Shown piece by piece: positions 164 through 35,834 of a DNA stretch of 37,574 nt (positions within the stretch are counted from its first letter, which is position 1; every line of letters starts with the position of its first letter). Source of the stretch: Akkermansia muciniphila. GTDB taxonomy: Bacteria > Verrucomicrobiota > Verrucomicrobiia > Limisphaerales > UBA9464. Where the stretch lies: NCBI GenBank assembly GCA_945898055.1, contig CAMDGV010000041.1, positions 1-37,574 of the forward strand, read 5' to 3'. The notes under the pieces are model-generated. The model was not told the origin of the DNA. It worked only from the letters and a program-made list of their open reading frames with translations, and made no database searches. The translations under genes were made by a program, and so were the position numbers.

Positions 164-794
164 GTCAGTTCTTGATATTGACTACTACCCGCCCAGCTTC
201 CTCCGGCGATACAAGAGAGGGTTCAGATAACCGCGCGTGCCCATCGCCAGACGCTCGGTGAGCCACCCCACCGTCATCGTTGTCTTCGCTCGCCAGCGCG
301 CCGCCAAAACCACCTTCACTGCATCCCCCTTGGGCCGAGGTTTGAGATCCGCTTCCTGCCCCCGCACCGGATTCAAGTGGACGTAAGCGCCCACGCTCTT
401 GAGATAACCGCTGCCCGATCGGTCCACGATCAGCGACTTGGAGCGCCCGGAGAACAAGTGGCCGGAAAGCTTGTGCCGCCGGTTGAAGCGACTCGGGTCA
501 GTGCCCAGCAACCCTTTCATCCCGGCGACCAGATGGGACTGCGGCGTCTCGACCACCCAATGAAAATGATTCGGCCTGAGGACATCGGCGTGAACCGGCC
601 AGCCCGTCTTGGCGCAAACCTCGCCCAGCGTCTCGACGAAGCGCAGGCGATCCGCAGCATCCCTGAAGATCAGTTGGCGCCGGTCACCGCGATTCATGAC
701 CTGATAATTCGCGGCAGCCTACTCGACTCTCAACTGGCGGGCCATGCCGGGAGAGGGGCTTTGGCCGCTTCACATTTTAATATTAAGAACTGAC
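164..794 (-). mobile_element. RAYT (Y1 transposase) element remnant with inverted ends
   Basis: The element is bounded by an 18-bp imperfect inverted repeat. The left arm is GTCAGTTCTTGATATTGA at 164-181. The right arm at 777-794 reads GTCAGTTCTTAATATTAA on the minus strand, with two mismatches. A decayed transposase fills the interior. RAYT proteins are single-copy Y1 transposases that live beside short palindromic repeats and are common in Verrucomicrobiota. That the ends belong to the element is inferred from their position just outside the gene. Confidence 0.6.
185..745 (-). pseudogene. REP-associated Y1 transposase, disrupted
   Basis: The minus strand encodes a Y1_Tnp (IS200-like/RAYT) protein with the hallmark PNHFHWVVETPQ segment (HxH metal-binding pair), then GMKGLLGTDPSRFNRRHKLSG and LFSGRSKSLIVDRSG. 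The natural start is probably ATG at 743-745, giving MARQLRVE followed by an in-frame TAG at 719-721. Relatives usually have a tyrosine there, in a stretch like VEYAGAxYHVMNRGDR. An internal ATG at 695-697 reopens the frame for 170 codons. After YVHLNPVR the sequence jumps to a C-terminal KPRPKGDAVKVVLAARWRA segment, so roughly 100 residues of the usual protein appear deleted. The family assignment is firm; the size of the deletion is estimated from memory of family length. It is probably inactive. Confidence 0.75.
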
Positions 795-2195: not shown

Positions 2196-2405
2196 TTCAA
2201 GGGGCATTCGGACCTTAAGCGCTCAATTGCAGCCTCTCGGAAGCGTCGTGGTCTTGCTGAAATCCAACTACGGATCGCTGAATTTAAAAGCTCGGGACTC
2301 TCGAAGGCTGAGTTTGCTGCGAGATTGGGTGTTCATCCTCTTTCGATGGATCGCTGGCAAGTCCTTCGATACGCTGACCGGGGTTGGCCGTACGTTTACT
2401 GCTAA
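2196..2405 (+). pseudogene. IS66 TnpA-like helix-turn-helix remnant
   Basis: A 69-codon open stretch from just after a TGA (2193-2195) to a TAA at 2403-2405, with no ATG at its beginning. It reads SRKRRGLAEIQLRIAEFKSS then GLSKAEFAARLGVHPLSMDRW. That matches the general pattern of the small helix-turn-helix accessory proteins of IS66-type elements and related transposase N-termini (an AExxxSGLSxxxFxxxxGLxxxTxxxW arrangement). No TnpB or TnpC partner follows, so it is a fragment. Part of its DNA recurs at 35.8 kb. The family call is by pattern and moderately uncertain. Confidence 0.45.
2235..2260 (+). repeat. 26-bp repeat shared with 35809-35834
   Basis: Here and at 35809-35834 the DNA is identical for 22 bases (TCTCGGAAGCG followed by TCGTGGTCTTG), then agrees in 3 of the next 4. 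In both places it encodes SRKRRGL in the plus frame. An exact 22-mer within 37 kb is not expected by chance, so both places probably hold pieces of one mobile gene. Confidence 0.6.
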
Positions 2406-2523: not shown

Positions 2524-5500
2524 CTATTGGTAACGAATGACCAACTTACCATTCACAATACTGACACTGGTCACCGTGACCATCGGGTGAATGGACAGAT
2601 AACCCTGAGCACCGTTAGATGGCAGGTCAGCAATGATTGTCTTGGCGGTGGTGTCGACGACCCCGATGAGTGCAACGCCACCAAAGGCGGCGGGCGGGGC
2701 GCCAGCGGTAACTGGTTTTTCAGGACGAATAGACGGATCGGTGATGAGCACCGGAATTGCATCACCATCTGCGGAACCTAGCGCCACCATTTCGGTATCG
2801 CTTAGTTTGCCAGAACGAATCTGAACACCACGGATCCACATTTCTCGGCGTTCGTCTTGATCGCCATCGGCAAACAGGATTGATGTTGCCTGAAGGGCAC
2901 GTCGGGGATTGTCCAAGCTCTGGTTCGCTGTCCAATCGTCTTGTTTAATGCCGTCAATGAACTTGGTCACTACCGGCGGTGTAGCAGCCATGTCGTAAGC
3001 AGCAACAACGCGATGCCATGCGCCGGTTGTGAAAATGCCGGTCCCGTTATAGCCGTTACCTCCTTGGCCAAAGTTGTTGCCTTGCCAGAAAAGGTCTCCG
3101 TCATCGGTGTTGCCGAGTGAACTTGTCTGTAACAAGGAGGCGGCGCCAGGCCCGCTAGTGGCGATGAACATATCCAACACTAACGTGTATTGGTTGACGC
3201 GGCTTCCGCCACCATTTGGAGCGATGCGATGAGCCATCACATAGCCCAATTTGCGATCCAAGGTTCCGGGTACCCGCATGACCGTCGGATCACCCTTGGG
3301 CAGTGCAGGAAGGCCAAAGGAGCTCACTGTGCCGAAAGCTGTCTTATCCTGAGCGGCACCACTTGGACCGTCGAAGGCAGGATCGAGGTAAGCCAAGCTA
3401 GCTCCAATAGAAGCGCTTAGATCACCGAATTCAAAGTCCCACTGACCGGTGACCGTTGAGGTCGGAAGACTCACTGGAATACCAGCGGCAGTCGGTCCGC
3501 CAAGTAGGAACATTTGAGCGTCGCTGAGTCGTTCAGAACGGATCTGGATTGAGCTAACGAACATCTCACGACGTTCATCTTGGTCGCCGTCCCCGAAGAG
3601 GATCGCCGTGGCTTGCAGTGCGCGTCGAGCGCTGTCGAGACCTTGATTGGCTGTCCAATCATCCTGCTTGATGCCATCGACATATTTCACCACGACCGGC
3701 GGATTGGCTGCCATATCGTAGGCAGCTGCAACGCGGTGCCAAGCGCCGGCGGTGAAGGTGCCACGCCCATTGTAGCCGCCACCACCTTGACCGAAATTGT
3801 TCCCCTGCCAGAAGAGGTCGCCGTCATCACTGTTGGCGAGTGAACTGGTCTGCCAGAGGGAAGCCGCACCGGGACCACTGGTGGCGACAAAGACGTCCAT
3901 AATCAGAGTGTATTGATTGACCCGACTCCCGCCACCATTTGGGGAAATCCGGTGATTCATGACATAACCTACGCGGCGATCCAGAGTGCCCGGAACCCGA
4001 AGAACGGCAGCATCCCCACCTGATAGGGCAGGGATTTGGTAGGCGCTGGCTAGGCCAAAGGAGGTCTTATCGTCGGTACTACCGGCTGGACCGTCGAAGG
4101 CAGGATCGAGGTAAGCCAAGCTAGCTCCAATGGAAGCGCTTAGATCACCAAATTCAAAGTCCCACTGACCGGTGACACTGCTCTGAGGAAGAGTTTTAGG
4201 AATACCTGCGGCCGTGGGGCTACCGAGGGAGAAACATTCTGCATCGCTTAATTTACCAGAACGAATCTGGATCGAGTTTACGAACATTTCACGGCGTTCA
4301 TCTTGATCGCCATCGCCGAAAAGAATCGCCGTGGCTTGCAGCGTGCGACGGGCGCTATCCAGCCCTTGGTTCGCGGTCCAATCGTCCTGTTTCACACCGT
4401 CGACGTATTTGACAACAACGGGCGGATTCGCTGACATATCATAGGCGGCCACCACTCGATGCCAAGCGCCTGCGGTAAAGGTACCACGCCCATTGTAACC
4501 ACCTCCACCTTGACCGAAATTACTACCCTGCCAGAAGAGGTCACCATCGTCGCTGTTAGCAAGTGAACTGGTCTGCCAGAGGGAAGCCGCACCGGGGCCG
4601 CTGGTGGCCACATAAACATCCATGATCAAGGTGTATTGATTCACTCGAGTTCCGCCGCCGTTGGGGGAGATTCCATGAGTCATCACGTAGCCGATCTTGC
4701 GATCGAGTGTACCCGGAACACGGAGGACCTTGGCGTCGCCACCGGGCAAAGCCGTCAAGCCGTAGGAACTCGCAGTGCCGAAAGAGGTTTTGTCCGCTGT
4801 GGAACCGGTGGGTCCGTCGAAGGTTGAATCAAAGTAGGCCAACGCTTGGCCTACACTGGCTCGTAGATCGCCCTGCTCAAAGTCCCACTGACCAGTTACT
4901 GTCGTCGAAGAACCACCGGAAGTAACGATGCCGAAGTTCCACGAATTGGTGCGGTTGACAGCCTCTGAATCGGTGTACTCGAGACGCACAAGATTGTCGC
5001 GAGTGGTACGGGTCGCATTGGGTGTATAGACTAAGCTGATGAGGCCATTGGTCTTGGACAAAGACTGGGGAAGCACCTTAGAGCCACTGAGGAAGAGTCC
5101 AACTCCGGCGGTTTGCACTGTGCTTTTGGCATCGGCAATCGTCACGGTAATGGGAGCAACCGCAGCAACACCGTCGGAACCGGGTCCGGGGCTGGCTTCG
5201 GCGACATAGGCCGCAAACGGAATAGAGCTCGTGGAATCGAGGTACGACGGTATGGCACGCTCATCGAGAGGATCGTTGACTAGAATACGTTCGCCCCCTT
5301 CGTTCACTGTGTAGAGCTGAAGATTCGCCCCATGACCGGTCTGCCAATAAAGCAACCGAACTGGGTACAACCCCGCGGTGGGTGCATTGACAGCCCAAGT
5401 GTTTTCATTGCGTTGATTGGAAGCGAACGGTTTGAACGCATTGCGATCATACTCCCCGATTTTTGTTCCAAAGAAATCGCGTGGGTTTGCACCCACAAAC

Positions 5501-6045
5501 ACGGCGTAGCCATCGTCGTCATTAACATCGGTTCGATCGGACGAGACACTCACTCCGAACACCGTGATTCCAGCGGGTAATTTGAGAAATCCAACGGCTT
5601 CAACGGCGAAGTTAGCAAAATGGCCGCCGGCACCGGGAATACCAGGAAAGAGGGCGGGCGTGTCGAAGGTGCGAACAACGTTACCTTCGATATCCGTCAC
5701 GTCGACAGGGACAGGGCTACCCGCATCCCCGAGTTCGAAATTGATCGTTTCAACCGACCAAGCCGCCGCTGGAGATATCTGTTCGCCGGGGATTGCTTCA
5801 TTGATGACGCGGGCGCCGGTGGCATCGGTGAGGGTACCATTTATTTGGCGCAAAGCTCGGACGCTATTATTTGCGACGAGCGCATCAGTGGGAGCCTGAG
5901 ATGTTCGGACAATGAATCCGCGATTTTTAGAGCCGGCCGTCGGCAATACTACGGAGGAGGGGAGGGTGTTTGTAGGCATGGCAGCTTGGGCGATGGAGAT
6001 CGCCAACAAACTACTCAAGGCCAGTAAAATTTTAGAATTATACAT
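2524..6045 (-). CDS. Secreted protein with three LamG-like (concanavalin A-type) repeats
   Basis: A 1173-residue exported protein. The signal peptide is MYNSKILLALSSLLAISIAQ followed by Ala. Residues 30-380 form an unassigned N-terminal region with beta-rich, PEGA/PA14-like character (NAPTAGLYPVRLLYWQTGHG). Three repeats of exactly 241 residues then begin at about 383, 624 and 865, each opening with VTGQWDFE and containing RVNQYTLxxD, GAWHRVxAAYD and VKYVDGxKQDDW. This is the usual layout of the LamG/concanavalin A-like jelly-roll used for carbohydrate or surface binding. The C-terminus is a short beta domain ending LVIRYQ. It is the last gene after PSCyt1/DUF1553 and DUF1501 on the same strand, and the terminator at 2452-2483 follows it. 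It probably binds polysaccharide at the surface; no catalytic domain is visible. Confidence 0.85.
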   Translation of the reverse strand: MYNSKILLALSSLLAISIAQAAMPTNTLPSSVVLPTAGSKNRGFIVRTSQAPTDALVANNSVRALRQINGTLTDATGARVINEAIPGEQISPAAAWSVETINFELGDAGSPVPVDVTDIEGNVVRTFDTPALFPGIPGAGGHFANFAVEAVGFLKLPAGITVFGVSVSSDRTDVNDDDGYAVFVGANPRDFFGTKIGEYDRNAFKPFASNQRNENTWAVNAPTAGLYPVRLLYWQTGHGANLQLYTVNEGGERILVNDPLDERAIPSYLDSTSSIPFAAYVAEASPGPGSDGVAAVAPITVTIADAKSTVQTAGVGLFLSGSKVLPQSLSKTNGLISLVYTPNATRTTRDNLVRLEYTDSEAVNRTNSWNFGIVTSGGSSTTVTGQWDFEQGDLRASVGQALAYFDSTFDGPTGSTADKTSFGTASSYGLTALPGGDAKVLRVPGTLDRKIGYVMTHGISPNGGGTRVNQYTLIMDVYVATSGPGAASLWQTSSLANSDDGDLFWQGSNFGQGGGGYNGRGTFTAGAWHRVVAAYDMSANPPVVVKYVDGVKQDDWTANQGLDSARRTLQATAILFGDGDQDERREMFVNSIQIRSGKLSDAECFSLGSPTAAGIPKTLPQSSVTGQWDFEFGDLSASIGASLAYLDPAFDGPAGSTDDKTSFGLASAYQIPALSGGDAAVLRVPGTLDRRVGYVMNHRISPNGGGSRVNQYTLIMDVFVATSGPGAASLWQTSSLANSDDGDLFWQGNNFGQGGGGYNGRGTFTAGAWHRVAAAYDMAANPPVVVKYVDGIKQDDWTANQGLDSARRALQATAILFGDGDQDERREMFVSSIQIRSERLSDAQMFLLGGPTAAGIPVSLPTSTVTGQWDFEFGDLSASIGASLAYLDPAFDGPSGAAQDKTAFGTVSSFGLPALPKGDPTVMRVPGTLDRKLGYVMAHRIAPNGGGSRVNQYTLVLDMFIATSGPGAASLLQTSSLGNTDDGDLFWQGNNFGQGGNGYNGTGIFTTGAWHRVVAAYDMAATPPVVTKFIDGIKQDDWTANQSLDNPRRALQATSILFADGDQDERREMWIRGVQIRSGKLSDTEMVALGSADGDAIPVLITDPSIRPEKPVTAGAPPAAFGGVALIGVVDTTAKTIIADLPSNGAQGYLSIHPMVTVTSVSIVNGKLVIRYQ
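2731..4899 (-). repeat. Three tandem 723-bp coding repeats
   Basis: Repeat units begin at 4899, 4176 and 3453 (minus strand), with a constant spacing of 723 bp, or 241 codons. Corresponding blocks such as the DPAFDGP region (near 3365, 4088 and 4811) line up at exactly this spacing. Units two and three share an almost identical 80-90 bp block around 3365-3455 and 4088-4178. This points to recent duplication or gene conversion inside the gene. Confidence 0.85.
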
Positions 6046-11323: not shown

Positions 11324-11952
11324 GCGCATCCAACTTCAAGGACGCGGAACCCGCTGAAGCGCTTGCGGAGTGCGAACGGCTGAGCGAGGAGAATCGGCAA
11401 TTGCGTGGATGATTGGAGTTGCCGGTCCCGGAAGTTGCGGCACCGCCCGCAGTTGTGCCAGGCCCGGTCAGCGCCGAGTCCAGTCCGGAAGAAAAGATGA
11501 GGTTTTTTCTCAGCCTCTTTTGCGGGTGCGAAGACGTTTATGCGATGCGGTGGGAGGGACGCAATGGAAAGGCGGGATTCTCCCCAGCTTGCCGAAGGAT
11601 TTGGGGCAAGCCGTCTAGGAAGCATTCGGAAGAACCAAGCGAAGACTTCCCGTTGACCGACCGGGTCATTAACGATCATTTGGTGGGCAAACTCATGGCA
11701 GGCGTTTACCCGCTGTTAGTCGATGAGACGTGCTTTTTCCTCGCCGCTGATTTTGACAAAGCGACTTGGCAGTAAGATGTGCGGACGTGTCTCCACACCT
11801 GTGGCGAGTGGAAAGTGCCCGCCCTGCTCAAAGGGTCACGCTCGGGACGCGTCGGGCACATCTGGATTTTCTTTGCGGCGCCATCGCCCGCCCGCCTCGC
11901 CTGAAAACTCGATGCGGCTATTCTGACCGAGGAACAAATCGTTCCCGACTAA
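11320..11952 (+). pseudogene. TOTE conflict system primase (AEP) domain, broken
   Basis: One reading frame from ATG 11320 gives MSASNFKDAEPAEALAECER, then stop codons at 11410-11412 (codon 31), 11773-11775 (codon 152), 11902-11904 (codon 195) and 11950-11952. Between them the frame reads as the archaeo-eukaryotic primase domain of TOTE conflict-system proteins: SSPEEKMRFFLSLFCGCEDV, YAMRWEGRNGKAGFSPACRR, FPLTDRVINDHLVGKLMAGV, the metal-binding FLAADFDKATW (hhhDhD), and SRSGRVGHIWIFF (sxH). Intact relatives continue for hundreds of residues with helicase and nuclease modules. Here everything beyond about residue 200 is missing. The relic shows a former defence-type gene, now inactive. Confidence 0.75.
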
Positions 11953-12136
11953 GAAAACGTCAACACCGCCTGAGCACTTCCACCCGTGCAATGCAATTCG
12001 TTACCCAAAAACGACATTAAAAGCGATAAAATGACAAATCCTGATTATGAATTATCCCCGTGACGACGCACCCCACACCCCAAGAAAAATTCAGGCACTA
12101 AAAAACTAGATCGAAAAAAAACCGTCACCGGTCACA

Positions 12137-12164
12137 TTGACAGCTTATCATCGAAGAATATACA
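12137..12164 (+). promoter_or_regulatory. Sigma-70-type promoter candidate
   Basis: TTGACA at 12137-12142 and TATACA at 12159-12164 are separated by 16 bases. They lie about 115 bp upstream of the glycosyltransferase-like gene, with repeat A between them. The -35 match is perfect and the -10 is 4 of 6. Confidence 0.4.
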
Positions 12165-12197
12165 GTCCGAAAATAGCGCACCAAAATCCAATTCTCC

Positions 12198-12244
12198 TTT
12201 TCCCCTCCCCATCAAAAAAGGAATAAAAGCAATTTCCTATCAGT
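12198..12244 (+). repeat. Dispersed junction repeat, copy A (47 bp)
   Basis: Full-length copy: TTTTCCCCTCC, then ATCAAAAAAGGAATAAAAGC, then AATTTCCTATCAGT. It is identical to copy B at 45 of 47 positions and in the same orientation. It forms the left side of the AT-rich phage-like island. Confidence 0.85.
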
Positions 12245-12277
12245 AACATAAACAATATAAATGGAGGAGACTAGATT

Positions 12278-13081
12278 ATGGAATTATCTATTAAGCTTGA
12301 AGACCTAAGAAAGTGTAAGTTAGTGGTCGCTACGCCAATGTATGGAGGAAACTGCCACGGAATGTACACAAAAGCTGCTCTTGAATTACAGGGCATTTGC
12401 CTGAAACATGGCATCGAAATTAGATTTTCCTTTTTGTTTAATGAATCTTTGATCACAAGGGCCCGCAATTATCTCGTTGATGAATTTCTCCGGTCGGGCT
12501 TTACACATCTCTTGTTTATCGATTCGGATATTTCATACGATCCAAATGATGTTCTAGCACTTATCGCTCTTGACAAGGATGTTATTGGCGGACCATATCC
12601 AAAGAAGTCTATTAATTGGAAGAATATCTTTGCTGCTGCTAAAAAGAATCATGATAATGACAAGTTTGATCCCGGTGAGCTTGATGGTCTTGTTGGCGAT
12701 TATGCGTTCAATCCAGTTCCAGGAACAGAGCAATTCAAGGTTACAGAACCTCTTGAAGTTATGGAAATCGGCACTGGTTATATGATGATTAAGCGCCAAG
12801 TATTTGATAAGTTCAAGGAAGAATATCCACATCTAAACTATAAGCCTGATCATGTCGACCAAGCTAACTTTGACGGATCAAGATATATTCATGCATATTT
12901 TGATACTGTCATTGATCCAGATTCGCACCGATATCTATCAGAGGATTATATGTTCTGTCAATACTGGAGAGCGATTAAGGGTCAGGTTTGGTTATGCCCA
13001 TGGATGAAGACGCAGCATATTGGAACGTATGCATTCTCTGGTAACATGCACCAAATTGCCGCGATAACCGGCAAGTTATAG
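12278..13081 (+). CDS. Glycosyltransferase-like protein, phage type
   Basis: A 267-residue protein with a GT-A-like core: it opens with KLVVATPMYGGNCHGMYTKA, followed by ESLITRARNYLVDEFL and THLLFIDSDISYDP, whose DSD fits the nucleotide-sugar/metal-binding DxD motif. Then come VIGGPYPKKSINW, EVMEIGTGYMMIKRQVFDKF and SEDYMFCQYWRAIKGQVWLC. Similar proteins, as I remember them, are frequent in T4-like marine phages. An excellent Shine-Dalgarno (GGAGGAG, 12263-12269) sits 8 bases before the ATG, unlike most genes in this window. There is no signal peptide. The gene is markedly AT-rich and probably viral in origin. It could modify a capsid, DNA or cell-surface glycan; the substrate is unknown. Confidence 0.7.
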   Translation: MELSIKLEDLRKCKLVVATPMYGGNCHGMYTKAALELQGICLKHGIEIRFSFLFNESLITRARNYLVDEFLRSGFTHLLFIDSDISYDPNDVLALIALDKDVIGGPYPKKSINWKNIFAAAKKNHDNDKFDPGELDGLVGDYAFNPVPGTEQFKVTEPLEVMEIGTGYMMIKRQVFDKFKEEYPHLNYKPDHVDQANFDGSRYIHAYFDTVIDPDSHRYLSEDYMFCQYWRAIKGQVWLCPWMKTQHIGTYAFSGNMHQIAAITGKL

Positions 13082-13092
13082 GGGGTAATATT

Positions 13093-13146
13093 ATGGCAGA
13101 AGATTCACTAGCTTCTATGTATTTCTTTATTAGTAATACAAAATAA
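13093..13146 (+). pseudogene. Truncated start of a second phage-like gene
   Basis: A GGGGG tract overlapping the end of the previous gene precedes ATG 13093. It encodes only 17 residues (MAEDSLASMYFFISNTK) before TAA at 13144-13146. Position, spacing and AT-rich composition fit the next gene of a phage operon that was cut short. The remaining 100 bp before the esterase have no frame. Confidence 0.4.
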
Positions 13147-13253
13147 GATATTACACTTAGAGCAAAGTTCTTGAAAGTTTAGGTTGAGGATTTTATATTG
13201 TAAATAAAACTGGTTGTGATAGGCCATATATTTCTTAGCGCAATTACTTTACA

Positions 13254-14099
13254 GTGATGATGATTTTTCCCCTCCTGATCAAAAAAGGAATAAAAGCAAT
13301 TTCCTATCAGTTGCTCCTCGCCGCCGCACTAAGCTTCGCCGCCTTCGTTGGCGAAGCCGCCAACTACAACATCCCCCTCTGGGATGCCGGCAAAGTTCCC
13401 GGCGCCGCGGGCGACGGCCCGCTCGACGCGCCCTTCCTCACTGTCTTCGAACCGCCGCCCGGCAAGGCCAACGGCACCGCCGTCATCATCGCCCCCGGGG
13501 GCTCCAACATCATGTTGATGTATGGCTTGGAAGGTATCGAAGTGGCCGAGCGCATGAACGACTGGGGCGTCACCGCCTTCGTGCTCACCTACCGCCTCAA
13601 CCCGCGCTACGGCGATCCGGCGCGCGTCGCCGACGGCAACCGCGCCATGCGCTTGGTCCGCTCGCGCGCCGAGGAGTTCAAGATTGATCCGAACAAGATC
13701 ATCTTCGCCGGCTTCTCCGCTGGCTCCTCGCTGGCCCGCTCGGTCGCCGCCGCGTCCGGCCCCGGCGACACCACCGCCCAAGACCCCGTCGAACGCCTCG
13801 ACTCCAAGCCCAACTATCTCCTCATGGTCTACAGTGCCGGCCGCCCCACGCCCGGCGAGAAGTTGAAGGAGTTCCCCCCGACCTTCCTGCTCGCCGCCGC
13901 CCATGACGCCGGCGCCGCCAACGCGAGCGCCCAGTTGTTCCTCGACATGAACCGTGCCGGCGCGGTCGTCGAGATCCATCTCTATCAGAAGGGCCGCCAC
14001 GGTTTCGGCGCGGCCACTACCAGCCCCGAGTTCTCGCCGTGGATGGACCAGTTCAAACACTTCCTCAAAATCGGCGGCTTCTTCGGAGGTTCCAAGTGA
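13254..14099 (+). CDS. Secreted alpha/beta-hydrolase (esterase/acetyl-xylan-esterase-like)
   Basis: The mature part is an alpha/beta-hydrolase of the BD-FAE/esterase-lipase type. The nucleophile Ser155 lies in GFSAG (153-157), the acid is probably Asp218 in AAAHDAGA, and the base is His249 in GRHGFG. The oxyanion segment is VIIAPGGSN. A hydrophobic secretory stretch (LLLAAALSFAAFVGEA) follows residue 20. The first about 20 residues (MMMIFPLLIKKGIKAISYQ) are a translation of repeat copy B, so the native start is probably lost or replaced. A TTG at 13311 could also start it. GC-rich, unlike the DNA to its left. It is followed 2 bp later by a SUMF1-domain gene. It probably deacetylates or hydrolyses esters of plant-type polymers, which is inference. 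Confidence 0.8.
   Translation: MMMIFPLLIKKGIKAISYQLLLAAALSFAAFVGEAANYNIPLWDAGKVPGAAGDGPLDAPFLTVFEPPPGKANGTAVIIAPGGSNIMLMYGLEGIEVAERMNDWGVTAFVLTYRLNPRYGDPARVADGNRAMRLVRSRAEEFKIDPNKIIFAGFSAGSSLARSVAAASGPGDTTAQDPVERLDSKPNYLLMVYSAGRPTPGEKLKEFPPTFLLAAAHDAGAANASAQLFLDMNRAGAVVEIHLYQKGRHGFGAATTSPEFSPWMDQFKHFLKIGGFFGGSK
13265..13311 (+). repeat. Dispersed junction repeat, copy B (47 bp)
   Basis: Same length and orientation as copy A, with two mismatches (TG for CC before ATCAAAAAAGG). It forms the right side of the AT-rich island and overlaps codons 5-19 of the annotated esterase frame. Confidence 0.85.
14085..14089 (+). promoter_or_regulatory. Shine-Dalgarno deciding the SUMF1 gene start
   Basis: GGAGG lies 12 bases before ATG 14102. 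It supports that start over the longer frame beginning at 14039, which would run deep into the esterase. Confidence 0.65.
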
Positions 14100-14981: not shown

Positions 14982-15373
14982 ATCGCTCTGCCCGCACCCG
15001 ATGTTTACCTTGATGTGCGACTAGGTCGTCTCCGGCGCCGGCTTCTTGGGTAGCTGCCAAGACCCGGCCGGGGTGCGCGGGATTTCCCCCTTTTCCCCTC
15101 CGCGTAAAAAACAATTTCCTGACAGTTGCAAAAGTCCCAGTCCAAGCACTCGTCGCCAACATAGAATTTTCCTGCACCTTGTCGACCATCCGGGTCCTGA
15201 ATGCATCGAGAGACCTCGCGCGTCCGAGGCAGGCTAGACCAAGCTCGGCGACCCGGCCCACAAGGGTGCTCGAATGCAACCGGAGCACGATGGCTGGGTT
15301 CTCTGCAGCGCAAGAGACGCCAAATCGCTCATCATTTCATGCCTCCCATATCCGTCGCATTCGTGGTCGAAGC
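14982..15373. other. Intergenic stretch with repeat copy C, no gene recognised
   Basis: About 390 bp of GC-rich DNA. Both strands are open in several frames (for instance 15005-15313 minus), but none has a recognisable domain, and they read through repeat copy C. Probably debris of lost genes. Confidence 0.3.
15091..15127 (+). repeat. Dispersed junction repeat, copy C
   Basis: Reads TTTTCCCCTCCGCGT, then AAAAAACAATTTCCTGACAGTTG. It matches the short form of the repeat (without the GGAATAAAA insert), with small differences around the core (GCGT for GTC, GACAG for TATCAG). Same orientation as copies A, B, D and E. Confidence 0.75.
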
Positions 15374-15760: not shown

Positions 15761-15792
15761 AGGGTGATCGAATGAAGCCGAGCTTTTCTTCA

Positions 15793-15823
15793 CCCCGTCA
15801 AAAAAGCAATTTCCTATCAGTTT
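15793..15823 (+). repeat. Dispersed junction repeat, copy D
   Basis: CCCCGTCAAAAAAGC followed by AATTTCCTATCAGTTT. It lies two bases beyond the stop codon of the DUF1501 gene (TAG, 15826-15828). Its first 24 bases match copy G (opposite strand, 28634-28657) at 21 positions. Confidence 0.85.
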
Positions 15824-19815: not shown

Positions 19816-19933
19816 AACCGCGCAGCGTCGCACGCCCTGGTGGATCGGCCGGTCGGGCAAGCGCGCGTCACTACCGAAGCGATGGTTCTAGCCTGGCGCA
19901 ACGGTCTGACGCCAGCGCTCAGTTTTTCGCACA

Positions 19934-19970
19934 TCCCCTTCTCCGTCAAAAAACAATTTCCTCGCAGTTT
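19934..19970 (+). repeat. Dispersed junction repeat, copy E
   Basis: TCCCCTTCTCCGTC, then AAAAAACAATTTCCTCGCAG then TTT. Short form of the repeat, same orientation as A-D, lying 35 bp beyond the stop codon of the OppD/DppD remnant. Confidence 0.75.
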
Positions 19971-35698: not shown

Positions 35699-35808
35699 CC
35701 GCAGAGCTGCCCCGTAGGCTCTCTCGAAAGGTAAGCGTACGCCCAACCCTATGGTTCCCAATGCGTCCTACTTGGATGTAGCTTGCGCAGATGAACTCAA
35801 TGGTACCG

Positions 35809-35834
35809 TCTCGGAAGCGTCGTGGTCTTGATGA
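35809..35834 (+). repeat. 26-bp repeat shared with 2235-2260
   Basis: Second copy of the segment that encodes SRKRRGL in the IS66-TnpA-like remnant at 2.2 kb; identical over the first 22 bases. Here the similarity stops after the repeat, so only a scrap of the mobile gene remains. Confidence 0.55.

What the first reader, a model, noticed from the sequence alone, without database searches (positions are those of the whole stretch)
11990..13311. AT-rich phage-like island flanked by 47-bp direct repeats
A viral-looking glycosyltransferase gene with a strong Shine-Dalgarno and AT-rich codons, plus the first 17 codons of a next gene, lies between repeat copies A and B, which agree at 45 of 47 bases. 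Its neighbours are GC-rich bacterial genes. This looks like capture of a phage fragment at the repeat, or loss of the rest of a prophage by recombination between the repeats.
Basis: partly seen in the sequence, partly recalled or inferred. Interest (0 to 1): 0.65.

Follow-up and report, generated by a model that had tools for sequence, protein, structure and literature searches.

The report
Phage gene captured at transposon ends
A gene from a T4-like virus sits in a bacterial chromosome between two copies of the end of a rolling-circle transposon, an end that is scattered in more than a hundred places in this genome and seems to collect stray DNA.

Summary
The 47-bp repeats belong to a directional ~38-nt family (136 places at ≤2 mismatches in this genome, reversed-pattern control 0). 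That unit is the 3' end of one subfamily of IS91-like (Y2 HUH, rolling-circle) transposons: it lies 208-266 bp behind the transposase stop in 6 of 11 loci of the subfamily, the query locus included, with looser or cut-off forms in 4 more. Repeat A ends a decayed copy of that transposon (11920-12244), so AT-rich 11990-12197 is transposon, not phage. The captured DNA is 12245-13264, with an intact phage gene (12278-13081, PHROG 1574, up to 80% identical to IMG/VR phage proteins), not found in 18 same-genus genomes. A and B alone share a private insertion, so they are sister copies. Eight of 124 copies carry 5-14-nt partial recopies of their own end (shuffle mean 0.43). Best explanation: IS91/ISCR-type capture, probably by aborted rolling-circle copying of A's end plus filler DNA, leaving B as the copied end. 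Prophage decay is unlikely. Only an assembly was available; reads were not checked. New variant of a known kind.

The parts
11920..12244 (+). 3' end of a decayed IS91-family transposon (element A): last transposase codons with in-frame stops, ~250 bp, then the terminal repeat
   Evidence: 76-79% identical to L111 and L122 in the same genome; aligned with the transposase-stop-to-repeat regions of three other genomes (L170, L161, L098)
12198..12244 (+). terminal repeat copy A (38-nt unit plus a private insertion of about 9 nt); sharp 3' end at CAGT
12245..13264 (+). captured foreign DNA (cargo), 27-40% GC
   Evidence: composition; of 40 listed alignments to phage loci 37 start 12-34 nt after A (others 55, 55 and 73), and none runs past 13093
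12278..13081 (+). intact 267-aa phage gene, PHROG 1574, probable GT-A glycosyltransferase
   Evidence: modest-confidence model resembling GT-A folds
12263..12269 (+). Shine-Dalgarno GGAGGAG
13093..13146 (+). start of a second small ORF (17 codons and stop), origin unresolved
   Evidence: no clear match
13265..13311 (+). terminal repeat copy B, sister of A
13312..14099 (+). host alpha/beta-hydrolase gene whose 5' end abuts B
   Evidence: Pfam Abhydrolase_3 5.5e-14 on the ORF 13254-14099; GC3 87.8%
15089..15126 (+). further solo copy of the terminal repeat
15784..15821 (+). further solo copy of the terminal repeat
19931..19968 (+). further solo copy, diverged

Best explanation
The repeats are the terminal origin end (oriIS-like) of a subfamily of IS91-like rolling-circle transposons found in Verrucomicrobiota, and the phage gene is cargo captured at that end. 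Shown: the repeat family, its place behind IS91-type transposases, A being such a 3' end, A and B being sisters, and short self-copied tails at other copies. Inferred: a Y2 transposase nicked A right after CAGT, and the freed 3' end copied A's last 47 nt. Synthesis then switched to, or was joined to, a stray T4-like phage DNA fragment and was finally rejoined to A's end. The result reads A - phage DNA - new copy B - host gene. The 5-14-nt tails at other copies would be the same event stopped early. The classical alternative inside this statement, one-ended transposition from a copy that had first landed in phage DNA, is listed as the first rival; its odds are part of, not beside, the confidence given here.
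For: 136 copies at <=2 mismatches, reversed-pattern control 0, against 0-3 in each of 18 same-genus genomes and 0-6 in each of 20 more distant ones. G020 carries a 464-codon open transposase frame (L170 3219-4613; Pfam on its 430-aa piece L101: Y2_Tnp 9.1e-27, Zn_Tnp_IS91 4.6e-20) with the repeat 208 bp behind its stop, then two cargo blocks each ending in a 38-40-bp repeat. With that protein as query, 6 of 11 distinct loci that keep the transposase end (the query locus among them) have the repeat 208-266 bp downstream at <=3 mismatches; of the other 5, two have it at 4 of 16 mismatches, one with a small deletion (seen by eye, missed by the script), one is cut off at the end of the DNA held, one has none. 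A aligns with those ends. The insertion in A and B occurs at no third place at <=3 mismatches. In 17 of 52 neighbouring same-strand pairs the upstream neighbour is among the three copies most like the downstream one, against 4.5% of random pairs and 1 of 18 inverted pairs; adjacent copies are direct in 48 of 59. Tails of 5 nt or more: 8 of 124 against a shuffle mean of 0.43, maximum 4 of 200 shuffles, and 6 of 50 outside this genome against 0.066, maximum 2. All 8 tails keep the CAGT or CAAT variant of their own copy (chance about 0.0006).
Against: No intact transposase was found in this genome: only N-terminal pieces (C85; C49) and decayed C-terminal ends. Of 30 Y2_Tnp loci of the order picked without regard to the repeat, 28 show no repeat behind the gene in the DNA held, though a few have little DNA held there, so the link is to one subfamily. 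Pfam finds nothing in the short transposase ends of L111 and L161; their link rests on similarity to L101 (L111: 46% over 108 aa, 5.8e-27). The donor phage was not found and the origin of 13094-13264 is open. The hairpin expected of such ends is clear in only a minority of 8 folded sequences. No tetranucleotide target rule like that of IS801 was found, only T or A at +1 (110 of 124). 9 of the 17 sister pairs lie in a palindrome-borne subfamily that may have multiplied on its own (read). The 124 copies include at least two that are themselves tails of a neighbour. The chromosome is known only from an assembly.
Confidence: 0.78

Rival explanations
1. Classical one-ended transposition (a variant of the best explanation): a short copy of the terminus first landed in a phage genome beside the gene, and a later rolling-circle event starting there carried the upstream phage DNA to the site just behind A.
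For: IS801, an IS91-family member, gives right-end fragments of 229, 360 and 679 nt and carried 290, 1017 or 1431 nt of upstream DNA (PMC3189936, passages). Arrays of direct copies fit a reused target.
Against: No exact match to the 20-base core pattern in viral contigs (exact matches only, so a diverged seed would be missed). The A-B private insertion would require the seed to come from A and return to A. Tails of 5-14 nt look too short to be moved as elements (inference).
Confidence: 0.35
2. Prophage remnant: a prophage was integrated here and recombination between A and B, or decay, left one gene.
For: Phage gene between direct repeats.
Against: The repeat is a multi-copy transposon end. 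The two annotated homologues opened sit among replication genes. The 40 alignments listed cover little beyond this one gene.
Confidence: 0.04
3. Assembly artefact: a metagenome assembler joined a phage contig to the bacterial contig at a short repeat.
For: More than 100 copies of a ~38-nt repeat, several within 300 bases of a contig end.
Against: A repeat-driven mis-join needs the repeat on the phage piece already, and no exact match is found in viral contigs. The A-B private insertion and the same layout in another genome (L170) argue for biology. Misplacement of a real A-cargo-B unit cannot be excluded.
Confidence: 0.09
4. Two independent solo insertions of the ~38-nt unit that happen to flank older phage-derived DNA.
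For: The unit has a defined left edge in most of 92 copies, as a miniature element would.
Against: A and B share an insertion found at no third place. B sits on the step from 29.5% to 70.7% GC.
Confidence: 0.06
5. Integron-like cassette array moved by a tyrosine recombinase at attC-like sites.
For: Gene blocks separated by similar direct sites.
Against: The site lies behind Y2 transposases. One block between repeat copies holds a gene fragment (tRNA-synthetase C-terminal part in L123). No integrase search was run.
Confidence: 0.03

Closest known systems
IS91 / IS801 one-ended transposition
   Same: Y2_Tnp plus Zn_Tnp_IS91 transposase; one fixed end behind the transposase gene; variable other end; miniature right-end fragments; carriage of adjacent DNA
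   Different: Solo ends are ~38 nt (47 here) instead of 229-679 nt; no GAAC-like tetranucleotide rule seen; short self-copied tails; more than 100 copies; foreign cargo between sister copies
ISCR elements
   Same: Thought to transpose adjacent genes by a rolling-circle mechanism with oriIS and terIS ends (PMC13393415, passages)
   Different: Capture here is seen next to solo ends with no intact transposase in the assembly, in an environmental lineage
Helitron filler-DNA capture (eukaryotes)
   Same: Rolling-circle element gaining unrelated fragments stepwise, with filler DNA added during break repair (PMC6544945, passages)
   Different: Cargo here is external to the end, between two sister termini; bacterial
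PHROG 1574 (phages DLP_6, Cr30, phiM12, vB_OspM_OC)
   Same: The cargo gene is a member: 1.7e-59 over residues 1-255; in the two phages opened the neighbours are replication genes
   Different: Here it stands alone in a chromosome

Membership tests
IS91-family element (for repeat A and the repeat family) | Y2 HUH transposase with IS91 zinc-binding domain next to the end | tested here: met
   In relatives: L101 piece of the L170 transposase PF04986 9.1e-27, PF14319 4.6e-20; end 208-266 bp behind the stop in 6 of 11 loci. In this genome only remnants
IS91-family element (for repeat A and the repeat family) | one end fixed, other end variable (one-ended products) | tested here: met
   sharp CAGT end; similarity to the left runs from ~38 nt in most copies to ~325 bp in three
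IS91-family element (for repeat A and the repeat family) | insertion next to a specific tetranucleotide | tested here: not met
   beyond CAGT only T (70) or A (40) of 124 at +1; the terminal CAGT itself might be the target, undecided. This lowers the claim of membership in the classical IS91 type, not the rolling-circle reading
IS91-family element (for repeat A and the repeat family) | hairpin in the origin end | tested here: inconclusive
   fold z-scores from -3.2 to +0.8 in 8 sequences
IS91-family element (for repeat A and the repeat family) | single-strand nicking at the end | not testable with these tools
   needs biochemistry
Prophage | integrase or structural genes, att sites | tested here: not met
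   the cargo holds one identifiable phage gene; the repeat is a multi-copy family
Integron cassette | IntI integrase acting on palindromic attC | not tested
   no integrase search was run; the site is associated with Y2 transposases
PHROG 1574 | profile match over nearly full length | tested here: met
   1.7e-59, residues 1-255 of 267, profile 1-236 of 240

The most novel reading that the evidence does not exclude
A bacterial DNA-collecting system: a ~38-nt rolling-circle transposon end that is repeatedly nicked, copies a few to a few hundred nucleotides of itself, and joins stray DNA (phage, perhaps other bacteria) into growing direct-repeat arrays. The short tails are a fossil record of aborted events, and the process works at solo ends supplied with transposase in trans.
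Probability: 0.3. Interest if true: 0.75.

Novelty: new variant of a known kind. Interest (0 to 1): 0.52.

Why it matters
ISCR elements of the IS91 group are thought to spread resistance genes (PMC13393415, passages), but how cargo is taken up is largely modelled. This lineage offers over a hundred solo ends, some with tails and sister copies, from which aborted and completed events might be read. It also suggests a route by which a gene of a phage without a prophage stage could enter a chromosome.

Tried and rejected
RAYT (REP-associated) origin: one RAYT-like ORF (L105 = L132) reads into the repeat, but among the RAYT ORFs printed for the 12 Y1_Tnp hits no other does so in that direction, so it was dropped. 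Retroelement with target-primed reverse transcription: suggested by the sharp 3' end and tails, but the genome search gave one RT over the cut-off and one weak hit; the first looks like a diversity-generating type (recalled); dropped once the IS91 link appeared. Group II intron: one domain V match (L127), adjacent but unrelated. Rfam on 9 sources gave that one match only, none on the repeat. Paper search for the letters of the repeat: 0 papers. IS91 with Verrucomicrobi*: 13 listed, none about this by title and abstract start; IS91 with Limisphaerales: 0; one search listed one paper, on introns and integrons. My first ORF filter on the 30 Y2_Tnp loci recognised only 7 of them and was redone. 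Searches with the 13094-13264 segment gave only weak hits. A script on tails outside this genome stopped with an error after printing part and was rerun in full.

Full report
What was claimed. All of that is in the sequence. The repeats agree at 45 of 47 bases.

The gene. It belongs to PHROG 1574 (1.7e-59). tblastn found 65 phage records, top-ranked one at 55.9% identity, in Stenotrophomonas, Caulobacter, Sinorhizobium, Ochrobactrum, Synechococcus and other phages. In two annotated phages that I opened it sits beside sliding clamp, clamp loader, RegA and peptide deformylase genes. Pfam gives only a sub-threshold Anp1 match (24.4 bits against 28.8). An 18-sequence AlphaFold2 model has mean pLDDT 64.8; of its best PDB matches several are glycosyltransferases, at TM-scores of 0.35-0.41 by query length for the top five, so 'glycosyltransferase' is likely but not firm. 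Of 39 genomes searched (own included), only G030 besides the own one has a match, a partial one at 30% identity; none of the 18 same-genus genomes has one, but they are 67-97% complete. GC3 is 37.8%, like five phage homologues (27.5-41.9%) and unlike the host gene next door (87.8%).

The repeats. A pattern for the last 20 nt finds 136 places in this genome at ≤2 mismatches (67 and 69 per strand), with 0 for the reversed pattern, 0-3 in each same-genus genome and 0-6 in each of 20 more distant ones. At ≤3 mismatches the tool reported 100 and 100, probably a cap. I read 124 copies from fetched stretches; at least two of these are themselves tails of a neighbour. The 3' end is sharp at CAGT or CAAT. 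In the 92 copies outside a palindrome-borne subfamily (by my filter), conservation drops to about 0.3 some 38 nt from that end. An exact pattern hits 29 stretches of genome contigs, 24 of them with labels of Verrucomicrobiota lineages and 5 others (Acidobacteria 2, Nitrospirae, Acidimicrobiia, unnamed; my count, lineage of the labels recalled), and 0 viral contigs.

What the repeat is. Comparing ORFs beside 123 repeats gave one family shared by L098, L101, L111 and L161: an IS91-type transposase (L101: Y2_Tnp 9.1e-27, Zn_Tnp_IS91 4.6e-20; no Pfam match for the short ends of L111 and L161). In G020 a 464-codon open transposase frame is followed by the repeat, then by two blocks of other genes, each ended by a 38-40-bp repeat and extra partial copies; the first block encodes an HNH protein and a DUF4268 protein. 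A pick of Y2_Tnp hits in the order made without regard to the repeat (42 of 195 genomes; 30 loci read) showed the repeat behind 2 of 30, both with a transposase ending in PDYxN...TD; one of the two is G020 again. A search with the G020 protein gave 23 matches in 16 of 320 genomes. Of 11 distinct loci that keep the end of the gene, the query locus included, 6 have the repeat 208-266 bp downstream at ≤3 mismatches, 2 have it at 4 of 16 mismatches, 1 has it with a small deletion (by eye), 1 is cut off at the end of the DNA held, and 1 has none. Window 11920-12244 aligns with these ends and with two other decayed copies in this genome, including the last transposase codons. Repeat A is therefore the end of an old, broken IS91-like element.

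How the phage gene got there. In the 40 alignments listed, phage similarity starts 12-34 nt after A in 37 (others 55, 55 and 73) and never runs past 13093. B marks the step from 29.5% to 70.7% GC. The insertion carried by A and B is found at two places only, A and B (≤3 mismatches), so one was copied from the other or from a shared source. Genome-wide, adjacent copies point the same way in 48 of 59 cases and are unusually alike: the upstream neighbour ranks in the top 3 for 17 of 52 direct pairs, against 1 of 18 inverted pairs and 4.5% of random pairs. Nine of these 17 are of the palindrome type and may reflect spread of that unit. Eight of 124 copies are followed by 5-14 nt of their own end again (shuffle mean 0.43, maximum 4 in 200), keeping the copy's own CAGT or CAAT variant 8 of 8 times (chance about 0.0006). 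Outside this genome 6 of 50 distinct copies do so (shuffle mean 0.066, maximum 2 in 500). Units this short can hardly be moved as elements; local recopying after a nick explains them, and the same event with longer copying and stray DNA gives A - phage - B. This mechanism is inference.

Other cargo. I looked at 10 of the 17 sister pairs; they enclose blocks of 1.0-3.2 kb. Two besides the phage block are AT-rich: L109 (36.8% GC, with a phosphoesterase gene) and L123 (39.6% GC, with the C-terminal part of a class I tRNA synthetase whose Pfam match begins one base beyond the left edge of the 104-bp repeat copy). Against a simple reading as bounded inserts, their surroundings are AT-rich too, on one side in L109 (36.0%) and on both in L123 (41.5% and 42.0%). 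The other seven are 49-61% GC. Donors were not identified.

Known kind and novelty. One-ended transposition with right-end fragments and carriage of 290-1431 nt is documented for IS801; the same paper holds that most IS801 fragments in the genomes it surveyed come from rearrangement rather than one-ended transposition, a caution here too (PMC3189936, passages). ISCR and IS91 end structure and models are in PMC13393415 and PMC5714925 (passages); filler-DNA capture by Helitrons is in PMC6544945 (passages). I saw no description of this repeat or of IS91 arrays in this lineage in the searches (listings only, apart from the passages named). Apparently new here are the very short solo end, its copy number, the self-copied tails, and foreign cargo between sister ends.

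Limits. No reads, no empty site, no intact transposase found in this genome, no donor phage, no IS91-like target tetranucleotide, weak hairpin evidence.

Noticed in passing
window 11413-11775: Degenerate fragment of a TOTE-system archaeo-eukaryotic primase (Pfam AEP-TOTE 4.7e-26) directly upstream of element A.
   Followed up: no
window 185-697 (-): RAYT/Y1-type transposase remnant; 12 Y1_Tnp matches in the genome, some lying against a copy of the terminal repeat.
   Followed up: partly
L106, L112-L118, L124 and others: A palindromic unit with GCGTCTTTGCGTGAGA arms carries the terminal repeat in its loop; 32 of 124 copies fall in this class by my filter.
   Followed up: partly
L123 1-6400 (C40): About 6 kb of 34-46% GC DNA with a tRNA-synthetase fragment and a GDSL lipase, containing two 100%-identical 104-bp copies of the terminal repeat.
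   Followed up: partly
L170 4840-9644 (G020): HNH and DUF4268 genes as a cargo block between transposon ends, possibly a defence gene pair.
   Followed up: no
L259 583-1250 (G228): Another transposase end with repeat, a TATCAGT tail, and a second solo repeat about 400 bp further on.
   Followed up: no
window 2222-2260 and 35796-35834: Another dispersed repeat (87% alike), also present in L129.
   Followed up: no
window 2524-6045 (-): Long ORF with three ~723-bp internal repeats.
   Followed up: no
L166 (C10): The only reverse transcriptase over the Pfam cut-off in the genome, with motifs of diversity-generating type, beside an IS110-like pair of ORFs (both names recalled).
   Followed up: no
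L127 57-131: Group II intron domain V fragment next to a copy of the terminal repeat.
   Followed up: no
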